Source: Mycolicibacterium vulneris
GTDB taxonomy: Bacteria > Actinomycetota > Actinomycetes > Mycobacteriales > Mycobacteriaceae
Length of the DNA stretch: 64,000 nt
NCBI RefSeq assembly: GCF_002104765.1
Contig: NZ_NCXM01000002.1
Span: 277,515-341,514, forward strand
Direction: 5' to 3'
Both the position numbers and the translations under genes were made by a program. The notes below the pieces were generated by a model. That model had not been told where the DNA came from and ran no database searches. It saw only the letters and a list, made by a program, of their open reading frames with translations. Position 1 is the first letter of the stretch. Each line of letters begins with the position of its first letter. Positions 15,499-46,788 of this stretch are shown here, piece after piece.

Positions 15499-18400
15499 GT
15501 GGAGCGTGCTGACCGGGCACTTTCTGTAACGCGGGGTCAACTGGATATCTGGCTGGCGCAGCAGACTGGCCACTTCGATGTGGCCTGGCAGTTGGGTGTG
15601 CTCGTACACATTGAGGGCGCAATAGACACCAATTTGTTGCATCAAGCTATGCGACACATGCTGAATGAGGCTGAGAGCCTAAGGGCTTCGTTCTTCGAGG
15701 TCGATGGCCAGGTCTTCCAGAGGGTCGTCGAATACGACGACGTCGACCTTGTCTTTTACGACCTGACCGAGTCACGTGATCCCGAGCGGGAAGTTCGTGA
15801 AACGGCTGCATCGATTCAGAACACGCCGATGCCGCTCACCGGCCCGATGATCAAGTTCGCGTTATTCCGGACAGCTCCCGACGAGTACTACTGGTTCACG
15901 ACCTGCCACCACATCGCCATCGACGGGATGGGCATTGCGCTGATCGGTCGGCGGATCGCGGCCATTTACTCCGCGCTCGCCTCCGGGAAACCGATTCCGC
16001 CCGCCTTCTTCGGCTCGCTGCACGACCTCGTCAGTGGCGAGTTGGAATACGAGGCATCGCCCAAATTCTCTGAGGACCAAGAATATTGGACCGCACACCG
16101 CCCCCAGGGCGACGGGGCGGCCTACCCGACGACCGCGGCCGACGATGGCCGCGACCCGTATTCACCCTCTCCGCCAGTGCAACTGGATCAGTCGGTGGTC
16201 GGCAAGCTCAAAGAGCTCTCCAAGGCGCTGGGCGTCCGTCGGTCATCGGTTCTGACGGCCGCCTGCGCACTTCTGGTGCGCGGCTGGTCCGCCGACGGCT
16301 CGGACGAGGTCGTGCTCGACTTCCCGGTCAGCCGGCGAGTCGATCCGGAGTCGAAGACCCATCCCGGCATGCTTGCCGGGGTTGTGCCACTTGTGTTGAA
16401 CGCCGCGCCGGACACGACGTTCGCCGAGTTCTGCCAGCACGTCGACACACGATCACGAGAAGCGTTGCGGCACCAGCAATTTCCAACACGCACACTCGAC
16501 GGCGAAGGCGACTTCAGCGGTCCGAGGCAGGCGCCCAACCGCGTCGTCGTCAACTTCGTCCCGGCCCGCCTCACGCTCAGTCTCGGCGGCGTGCCAGCCA
16601 CGGCGAAATACACCAGCTATGGCCCGGTGGGCCACTTCGGGCTGTTCTTCCTTGGATTCGGCGACCAGCAGTTCCTGAGCACCGTCGGTACCGGGCAACC
16701 GTTCTCGAACTTCGACGTTTCGGACCTGCGGGAGCGGCTGCAGCGGATCCTGGCGGCGATGGTGGCCCATCCCGAAGGGCACCTGTCGTCGTTGGACGTG
16801 CTGCATGCAGATGAGCATGCCCGCCTGGAAGAGGTTGGAAACACCGCGGTTTTGACCGAGCCGGTGGATTCGCCGATGTCGGTGCCGGAGTTGTTCGCCA
16901 CGCAGGTGGCCCGCGTGCCCGACGCCGTGGCACTGGTGTGCGAGGGCGTATCGGTGACCTACCGGGAGCTGGACGAGGCGTCGAACCGGCTGGCGCATCG
17001 CCTGCTGACCCTCGGCGCCAGCCCGGGACAGACTGTGGCGCTGCTGTTTTCGAGGTCCACCGAGGCCGTCGCGTCGATCCTGGCGGTGCTCAAGACCGGG
17101 GCCGCGTATCTGCCCGTCGATCCCTCGTCGCCCAAGGCGCGGATCGAATTCATGCTTGCCGATGCCCGGCCGGTCGCCGCGGTGACGGTCGGGGATCTGG
17201 CTGATCGGTTCGACGGCCACGGCCTGACCGTGATCGACGCCGCCGATCCTGGCATCGATGCCCAGCCCGCCACGGCACTGCCCATGCCGAATCCTGCCGA
17301 TATCGCCTACCTGATCTACACCTCGGGGACCACCGGTGTGCCCAAAGGCGTTGCGGTTACTCATCGCAACGTCACTCAGCTGATGAGCTCGCTGGATGCG
17401 GGCCTGCCGGCCGAGGGGGTGTGGTCGCAGTGTCATTCGTACGCATTCGATGTGTCGGTGTGGGAGATCTTCGGCGCGCTGCTGCGCGGCGGACGCGTGG
17501 TGGTGGTGCCTGAGGACATAACCCGATCGCCCGAAGAACTCCACGACGTCCTGGTGGCCGAGGAAGTCAGCGTCCTGACCCAGACGCCGTCGGCGGTCGC
17601 GATGCTGTCGCCCGAGGGCCTGGAGTCCGTGTCACTGGCGGTGGTCGGCGAGGCCTGCCCGCCCGAGGTGGTCGACCAGTGGGCGCCCGGACGGCTGATG
17701 GTCAATGCCTACGGCCCCACCGAGACGACCATGTGTGTCGCGATCAGTGCGCCGCTGGTGGCGGGATCCGGCGTGCCGCCCATCGGTTCCCCGGTGCCCG
17801 GCGCGGCCCTGTTCGTCCTCGACGGCTGGCTGCGACCGCTACCACCCGGAGTGGTCGGCGAGCTGTACGTGGCCGGCGCCGGAGTGGCCGGCGGCTATGT
17901 CGGCCGATCCGGGCTGACGGCGACGCGGTTCGTGGCGTGCCCGTTCGGCGAGCCGGGCGCACGCATGTACCGCACCGGCGACCTCGCGTCCTGGGGCCCC
18001 GATGGCCAACTGCAGTATCTGGGCCGCGCCGACGAGCAGGTCAAAATCCGCGGGTACCGCATCGAACTCGGCGAGGTCCAGGCCGCGCTGGCCGCACTCG
18101 ACGGTGTCGACCAGGCCGTGGCGATCGTCCGCGAAGACCGTCCGGGCGACAAACGTCTGGTCGGTTACGTCACCGGGACCGCCGACCCGGCCGAGGCGCG
18201 CGCCGCGCTGGCCGACCGACTCCCGACCCACATGGTGCCGACCGCGGTCGTGGCGCTCGATGCGCTGCCCCTGACGGTCAACGGCAAGCTGGACACCCGC
18301 GCGCTGCCGGCACCCGAGTACACCGCGCGCGAGTATCGCGCCCCGGGCAACGCCGTCGAGGAGATTCTGGCCGGCATCTACGCCGAGGTGCTCGGTGTGG

Positions 18401-46788: not shown

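What the first reader, a model, noticed from the sequence alone, without database searches (positions are those of the whole stretch)
15499..46788. A single 31.3-kb gene for an octamodular peptide synthetase with a fully readable assembly line
All expected catalytic motifs of eight modules, three epimerases, one N-methyltransferase and a terminal thioesterase are intact in one frame of 10,429 codons. Condensation-domain types agree with epimerase positions throughout, so the machine looks functional. It predicts an acylated octapeptide D1-NMe2-L3-L4-D5-L6-D7-L8. I know of no named mycobacterial natural product with this pattern.
Basis: partly seen in the sequence, partly recalled or inferred. 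Interest (0 to 1): 0.92.

Follow-up and report, generated by a model that had tools for sequence, protein, structure and literature searches.

The report
Giant enzyme for mycobacterial lipid octapeptide
This 31-kb mycobacterial gene encodes one giant eight-module enzyme that is predicted to build a fatty-acid-capped peptide of eight amino acids, likely for the cell surface, and it is a longer relative of the enzyme that likely makes the Mycobacterium avium lipopentapeptide used in tests for Johne's disease.

Summary
Window 15499-46788 (+) is one uninterrupted 10,429-codon NRPS with eight modules: C-A-T-E / C-A-MT-T / C-A-T / C-A-T / C-A-T-E / C-A-T / C-A-T-E / C-A-T-TE. Condensation-domain types match the epimerase positions. 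An mbtH gene 53 bp upstream was missed.

The gene is not unique. Of 27 other mycobacterial genomes from which I fetched loci, 9 hold a complete gene of identical architecture and 10 agree as far as the sequence reaches. dN/dS is 0.17-0.30 (4 comparisons).

"No named product with this pattern" does not hold up. Modules 1-5 are 81% identical to a pentamodular M. avium protein that fits the synthetase of L5P (D-Phe-NMeVal-Ile-Phe-Ala). A 2025 paper says a lipooctapeptide was described from rough M. avium and fits M. avium complex predictions.

Predicted product: acyl-D-Phe-(NMe-Val)-Ile-Phe-D-Ala-Xaa-D-Ala-Phe; Xaa is likely Ile or Val, Thr not excluded. In a tree the pentamodular form nests among octamodular ones, so L5P likely comes from a shortened descendant of this assembly line. 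New member of a known kind; the evolutionary reading is its most interesting part.

The parts
15499..46788 (+). octamodular NRPS gene, 10,429 codons
15218..15445 (+). mbtH-like gene (75 aa, TTG start), ends 53 bp before the NRPS; likely A-domain partner
   Evidence: PF03621 94.7 bits; a homolog ends 31-68 bp before the NRPS in 6 of 9 complete orthologs
15517..16809 (+). C1, starter-type condensation domain (acyl start inferred)
16897..18540 (+). A1-T1, pocket DVWTAVAMCK (Phe-type)
18547..19857 (+). E1 epimerase
20020..21288 (+). C2, after-E type
21373..24246 (+). A2-MT-T2; MT at 22786-23868; pocket DAGFMGVVWK (nearest whole domain Val, pocket unsure)
24307..27411 (+). module 3 C-A-T, pocket DFWTVGVMWK (Ile)
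27475..30585 (+). module 4 C-A-T, pocket DVWTVAAMCK (Phe-type)
30649..35061 (+). module 5 C-A-T-E, pocket DVWSVAAVYK (Ala), E5 at 33754-35061
35224..38235 (+). module 6 C-A-T, after-E C domain, pocket DFWSVGVIFK (Ile/Val-like, Thr not excluded)
38296..42726 (+). module 7 C-A-T-E, pocket DVWSVAAVYK (Ala), E7 at 41419-42726
42892..46743 (+). module 8 C-A-T-TE, after-E C domain, pocket DVWTVAAMCK (Phe-type), TE at 45946-46743
13254..14060 (-). SfLAP-family (PF11139) membrane protein, divergent to mbtH-NRPS; likely export partner
   Evidence: homolog within 1.5 kb upstream in 5 of 9 complete orthologs and downstream in 1
3..3065 (-). MmpL transporter gene (runs off the window), 12 kb away; possible export partner, weak link
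   Evidence: a homolog (31-40% identical) starts within 1.7 kb downstream of the NRPS in the other 3 of 9 orthologs

Best explanation
The gene encodes a complete eight-module NRPS, preceded by an mbtH gene, that is predicted to join a fatty acid to eight amino acids and release a likely linear lipooctapeptide, likely acyl-D-Phe-NMe-L-Val-L-Ile-L-Phe-D-Ala-L-Xaa-D-Ala-L-Phe (Xaa likely Ile or Val), which is likely exported to the cell envelope. Shown: uninterrupted frame, domain order, the motifs tested, condensation-type pattern, pocket codes, conservation of the architecture, purifying selection. Inferred: acyl start (starter-type C domain and the N-acylated relatives L5P and GL8P), residue identities (pocket identical to yardsticks at 3, 5 and 7; one difference at 1, 4 and 8; unsure at 2 and 6), linear release, a possible methyl ester, export by the SfLAP-family protein or an MmpL. 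It is an octamodular relative of a pentamodular M. avium enzyme that fits the L5P synthetase; that enzyme likely arose from this architecture by in-frame loss of the stretch between module 5 and the last T-TE.
For: Frame and domains. C-type tree with 48 domains of five proteins, one of them (P0013) matching GL8P, whose D/L residues were measured. Pocket codes against P0013 and P0027. P0027 is 81% identical over modules 1-5 and has E1, MT2, five modules and TE. Identical complete architecture in 9 of 27 fetched genomes, 10 more agreeing as far as they reach. dN/dS 0.17, 0.20, 0.24, 0.30. mbtH and SfLAP or MmpL neighbours. P0027 lies inside a clade with octamodular members on both sides.
Against: No chemistry from this strain. 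Pocket at module 2 differs from the L5P Val pocket at 5 of 9 positions, and module 6 is equally far (3 of 9) from the Ile and the Thr yardstick. Assigning P0027 to L5P and P0013 to GL8P is by architecture, order and species name; no gene label proves it. No acyl-activating enzyme was seen among the flanking ORFs scanned in the window. Transport partner differs between orthologs and lies outside the operon. The tree used a quick method without bootstrap, and A5 of P0027 is equally close to A5 and A7 of the window, so the exact joint is not fixed.
Confidence: 0.8

Rival explanations
1. The enzyme is active but its product is a cyclised or secreted peptide (antibiotic- or siderophore-like), not an envelope lipid.
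For: A TE can cyclise; residue 6 could be Thr, which would offer a hydroxyl; no acyl-activating enzyme among scanned window ORFs.
Against: Starter-type C1 groups with that of P0027, which fits the linear L5P; best whole-domain match at module 6 is Ile; SfLAP or MmpL genes close to 9 of 9 complete orthologs.
Confidence: 0.12
2. Module gain instead of loss: the pentamodular M. avium enzyme is the older form and the octamodular one gained E5 and three modules.
For: Modules recombine easily; the tree is midpoint-rooted and quick.
Against: P0027 branches with octamodular genes on both sides, so gain would need several parallel events with identical results; its last T resembles T8, not T5; 9 of 9 complete orthologs with the same start order and a single gene are octamodular (these were picked with frame length in view).
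Confidence: 0.15
3. The downstream NAGGN genes (46876-50537) act on the lipopeptide, for instance by amidating its C-terminus.
For: Only 87 bp separate the NRPS from the amidotransferase gene.
Against: Both score as equivalogs of the NAGGN osmolyte enzymes (1028 and 892.6 bits against cut-offs 570.1 and 569); the link holds in only 4 of 9 complete orthologs.
Confidence: 0.03
4. The gene is an assembly artefact or a decaying relic.
For: The window's genome is a draft of 133 contigs and other NRPS frames end near contig ends.
Against: Same architecture on multi-megabase contigs in G046 and G157; G061 is 96% identical end to end; in the internal repeat families listed, copies are at most 87% identical to the reference over 300 nt; dN/dS 0.17-0.30.
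Confidence: 0.02

Closest known systems
L5P (lipopentapeptide, Para-LP-01) of M. avium subsp. paratuberculosis and its synthetase Mps1; ovine form L3P
   Same: Modules 1-5 in order: E after module 1, N-methyltransferase in module 2, pockets of Phe, (Val), Ile, Phe, Ala, TE at the end; 81% identity to the M. avium protein P0027 that fits it. L5P is N-acyl-D-Phe-NMe-L-Val-L-Ile-L-Phe-L-Ala (PMC8103206: abstract start and passages).
   Different: Eight modules instead of five (C-type) or three (S-type; PMC8471605 passages); extra epimerases E5 and E7, so Ala-5 would be D; module 2 pocket differs at 5 of 9 positions.
Lipooctapeptide of a rough M. avium variant (Riviere et al. 1996)
   Same: Named as a lipooctapeptide consistent with predictions from M. 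avium complex genomes in the Discussion of PMC11978893; the title says phenylalanine-containing.
   Different: Unknown: the 1996 paper is not held, and PMC8103206 cites it for a synonym of the pentapeptide L5P, so even its length is uncertain to me.
GL8P of M. abscessus (MAB_4690c/MAB_4691c)
   Same: N-acylated mycobacterial octapeptide; shared pocket codes for Ile and Ala; same condensation-domain types.
   Different: Two genes (2 + 6 modules), epimerases at 1, 3, 6, 8, sequence T-A-F-I-Y-L-T-T with O-methyl-Tyr and rhamnoses (PMC11978893 sections 6 and 8 part 1); no MT in the stretch of P0013 examined.
Glycopeptidolipid (GPL) synthetases Mps1/Mps2 and neighbours
   Same: Mycobacterial lipopeptide NRPS with mbtH and an SfLAP-family protein nearby (GPL gene order recalled, not tested).
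   Different: GPL is a tetrapeptide with an alaninol end (recalled); here eight modules and a TE.

Membership tests
Modular NRPS with TE release | Repeated C-A-T modules in one frame with intact catalytic motifs and a terminal TE | tested here: met
L5P-lineage lipopeptide synthetase (M. avium Mps1) | Order C-A-T-E / C-A-MT-T / C-A-T / C-A-T / C-A-T over the first five modules | tested here: met
   81% identity to P0027
L5P-lineage lipopeptide synthetase (M. avium Mps1) | Pocket codes Phe-Val-Ile-Phe-Ala at modules 1-5 | tested here: inconclusive
   Identical at 3 and 5, one difference at 1 and 4, five differences at 2
L5P synthetase proper | Five modules (three in S-type), TE after module 5 | tested here: not met
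   Eight modules, E after module 5
L5P synthetase proper | Product is an N-acyl pentapeptide methyl ester (ester recalled) | not testable with these tools
   no chemistry available
GL8P synthetase | Two genes (2 + 6 modules), epimerases at 1, 3, 6, 8 | tested here: not met
   One gene, epimerases at 1, 5, 7, MT in module 2
GPL synthetase | Four modules with alaninol (reductive) release (recalled) | tested here: not met
   Eight modules, TE

The most novel reading that the evidence does not exclude
Mycobacterial surface lipopeptides shrink by whole-module loss: an ancestral eight-module synthetase, kept in this window and in many other mycobacteria, was cut in M. avium to six (protein P0060), five (L5P) and three (L3P) modules, so the diagnostic antigens of Johne's disease are trimmed remnants of one old lipooctapeptide.
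Probability: 0.6. Interest if true: 0.6.

Novelty: new member of a known kind. Interest (0 to 1): 0.38.

Why it matters
It gives an intact single-gene blueprint, with masses and stereochemistry to look for, of a lipooctapeptide in the M. avium complex and its kin. If L5P and L3P come from shortened versions of this enzyme, antigens used to tell M. avium paratuberculosis from its relatives differ mainly by module number, which bears on cross-reactivity of serological tests, and the family becomes a natural record of how NRPS genes lose modules and stay in frame.

Tried and rejected
Considered and rejected: a siderophore reading (pocket codes are of Phe, Ile and Ala type; no siderophore-type gene among the flanking ORFs scanned); a role of the downstream NAGGN genes; membership in the GL8P or GPL families; a repeat-collapse artefact. 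My first automatic pocket-code script misread positions 299/301 in several domains; it was replaced by an alignment-based reading, and only that is used. Rfam gave no match over the gathering scores in the window. Paper searches. That I saw no paper deriving L5P from an octamodular ancestor rests on these listings and on the passages read, within one open-access library. In some searches the best 120 rows hold no protein longer than 7,612 aa, so full-length named orthologs could not be listed there.

Result: 9 complete with the window's architecture; 10 cut by a contig end or by the fetched stretch but in the same order as far as they go (G038, G155, G118, G122, G129, G059, G131, G048, G062, G001); 1 with a closed frame of four C-A units and no TE (G096); 7 different assembly lines (G110, G164, G119, G054, G065, G077, G031). 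One listed 10,824-codon frame (G122:C32) was not fetched.

Full report
What is in the window. The ORF at 15499-46788 on the + strand is 31,290 bases, begins with GTG and has no stop before its last codon. Domain models that I built from the gene itself, resolved by score, give C-A-T-E / C-A-MT-T / C-A-T / C-A-T / C-A-T-E / C-A-T / C-A-T-E / C-A-T-TE. Pfam and NCBIfam agree on the domain classes, and an independent whole-genome Condensation search places 11 C or E domains in the gene. The catalytic motifs that I could test are present in all 8 C, 3 E, 8 A and 8 T domains and in the single MT and TE (patterns recalled; A10 of modules 2 and 6 read by eye; A2 and A6 not tested because my patterns failed).

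An mbtH-like gene lies at 15218-15445, 53 bp before the NRPS (PF03621, 94.7 bits). In 6 of 9 complete orthologs a match to it ends 31-68 bp before the NRPS; in one it lies about 9 kb downstream, in two it was not found in the fetched stretch. A divergent SfLAP-family membrane protein gene lies at 13254-14060. Of the 9 complete orthologs, 5 have an SfLAP homolog within 1.5 kb upstream, 1 has it downstream, and the other 3 have an MmpL homolog starting within 1.7 kb downstream (flanks of 4-13 kb were available). The downstream N-acetylglutaminylglutamine amide genes (46876-50537) are linked in only 4 of 9, so I take them as neighbours and not as part of the pathway.

Condensation types. In a tree of 48 C and E domains from five proteins, starter C domains, C domains that follow E, C domains that follow T, and E domains each fall on one side of a branch (support 100/100 for three groups, 92/87 for the after-T group; the program warns that the long branches of the starter and after-E groups meet). 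One of the five proteins is P0013 of M. abscessus, whose order matches GL8P; the D and L residues of GL8P were measured by Marfey analysis (PMC11978893, section 8 part 1). So the claim that condensation types agree with epimerase positions holds.

Which amino acids. Pocket codes were read from an alignment anchored on motif spacing. The yardsticks are P0013 (Thr, Ala, Phe, Ile, Tyr, Leu in the order of GL8P) and P0027, a 6,299-residue M. avium protein with C-A-T-E-C-A-MT-T-C-A-T-C-A-T-C-A-T-TE that fits L5P (D-Phe-NMe-L-Val-L-Ile-L-Phe-L-Ala; PMC8103206, abstract start and passages). Tying these proteins to GL8P and L5P is my inference from architecture, order and species names. Against them, module 3 is identical to Ile, modules 5 and 7 are identical to Ala, modules 1, 4 and 8 differ from a Phe code by one of nine positions, module 2 is nearest to Val as a whole domain (76%) but differs at five of nine pocket positions, and module 6 is nearest to Ile as a whole domain (73.6%) while its pocket is three positions away from both Ile and Thr. 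Predicted core: D-Phe, NMe-Val (unsure), Ile, Phe, D-Ala, Xaa (likely Ile or Val, Thr not excluded), D-Ala, Phe.

Relatives. A scan of named genomes with part of module 2 found close relatives, the best by identity in M. colombiense GF28 (91%) and Mycobacterium sp. 852014-50255 (83%), which places the window in or near the M. avium complex; the species itself is not established. In 198 genomes of the genus the MT region has matches in 187, paralogs included. I fetched loci of 27 genomes picked from the better matches: 9 hold a complete gene with the window's exact architecture (10,324-10,439 aa), 66-96% identical; 10 agree as far as the sequence goes; 1 has a closed frame with four C-A units and no TE; 7 are other assembly lines. 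Codon comparison with 4 orthologs gives dN/dS 0.17, 0.20, 0.24 and 0.30. The gene is therefore maintained. Across the 9 orthologs the pocket codes vary at several positions, while module 3 (Ile) is identical in all, so products will differ between species.

Link to L5P. P0027 aligns to window residues 10-6105 at 81% identity. Its C5 groups with C5 of the window, its last T reads like T8 and not like T5, which partners an E domain (by eye), and its A5 is equally close to A5 and A7 of the window (79.5% each), so the joint lies between C5 and the last T. In a tree of modules 1-4 of 21 proteins, P0027 branches with octamodular genes on both sides (quick method, SH-aLRT only). The simplest account is one in-frame loss in the M. 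avium line. A second M. avium protein, P0060 (a partial record from a 32-kb contig), shows modules 2-5 with E5, then one Phe-type module with TE: six modules if module 1 is present, though a draft assembly could mislead. MAP strains are reported with five and three modules (PMC8471605 passages).

What was known. GL8P, a glycosylated lipooctapeptide of M. abscessus from a two-gene system, was published in 2025 (PMC11978893: outline with abstract, passages, sections 6, 8 part 1 and 12 seen). Its Discussion says that a lipooctapeptide was described in a rough M. avium variant (Riviere et al. 1996), consistent with predictions from M. avium complex genomes. PMC8103206 cites the same 1996 paper where it gives synonyms of the pentapeptide L5P. 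I could read neither the 1996 paper nor Data S1, so whether this exact octapeptide is already described is open. The kind of product is known either way.

Verdict. In kind it is known: a lipopeptide synthetase of the L5P lineage with eight modules. The new element is the likely direction of change, from eight modules to the shorter M. avium forms.

Noticed in passing
window 46876-48750 and 48747-50537 (+): A pair of genes for the osmolyte N-acetylglutaminylglutamine amide (TIGR03104, TIGR03103), directly downstream of the NRPS and linked to it in 4 of 9 complete orthologs.
   Followed up: partly
protein P0027 (M. avium, 6,299 aa), C-terminus: Its thioesterase domain ends early compared with P0060 and the window and lacks the stretch with the DxxHxE motif; described only.
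   Followed up: no
G000 contig C111: 734-10948 (-) and 58935-69188 (+): Two further NRPS genes of 3,487 and 3,494 codons in opposite orientation, each with an MbtH match close by. The genome holds 55 Condensation matches in all.
   Followed up: no
G096:C1 around 581849-583345: An ortholog-like NRPS (65% identical) whose frame closes after four C-A units without a TE; the line may continue in another gene.
   Followed up: no
window 4349-4433 (-): ARAGORN calls a tRNA-Gly inside a UbiD-family ORF (4124-5677, -); likely false or an odd overlap.
   Followed up: no
window 57235-58167 (+): One ORF matches both an ArsR-type regulator and a low-molecular-weight phosphatase (arsenate reductase-like) domain.
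   Followed up: no
window 11872-13104 (+): Fatty acid desaturase gene (PF00487) near the NRPS; a homolog is in the fetched flank of 2 of 9 complete orthologs (G061, G046). It might act on the acyl chain, untested.
   Followed up: partly
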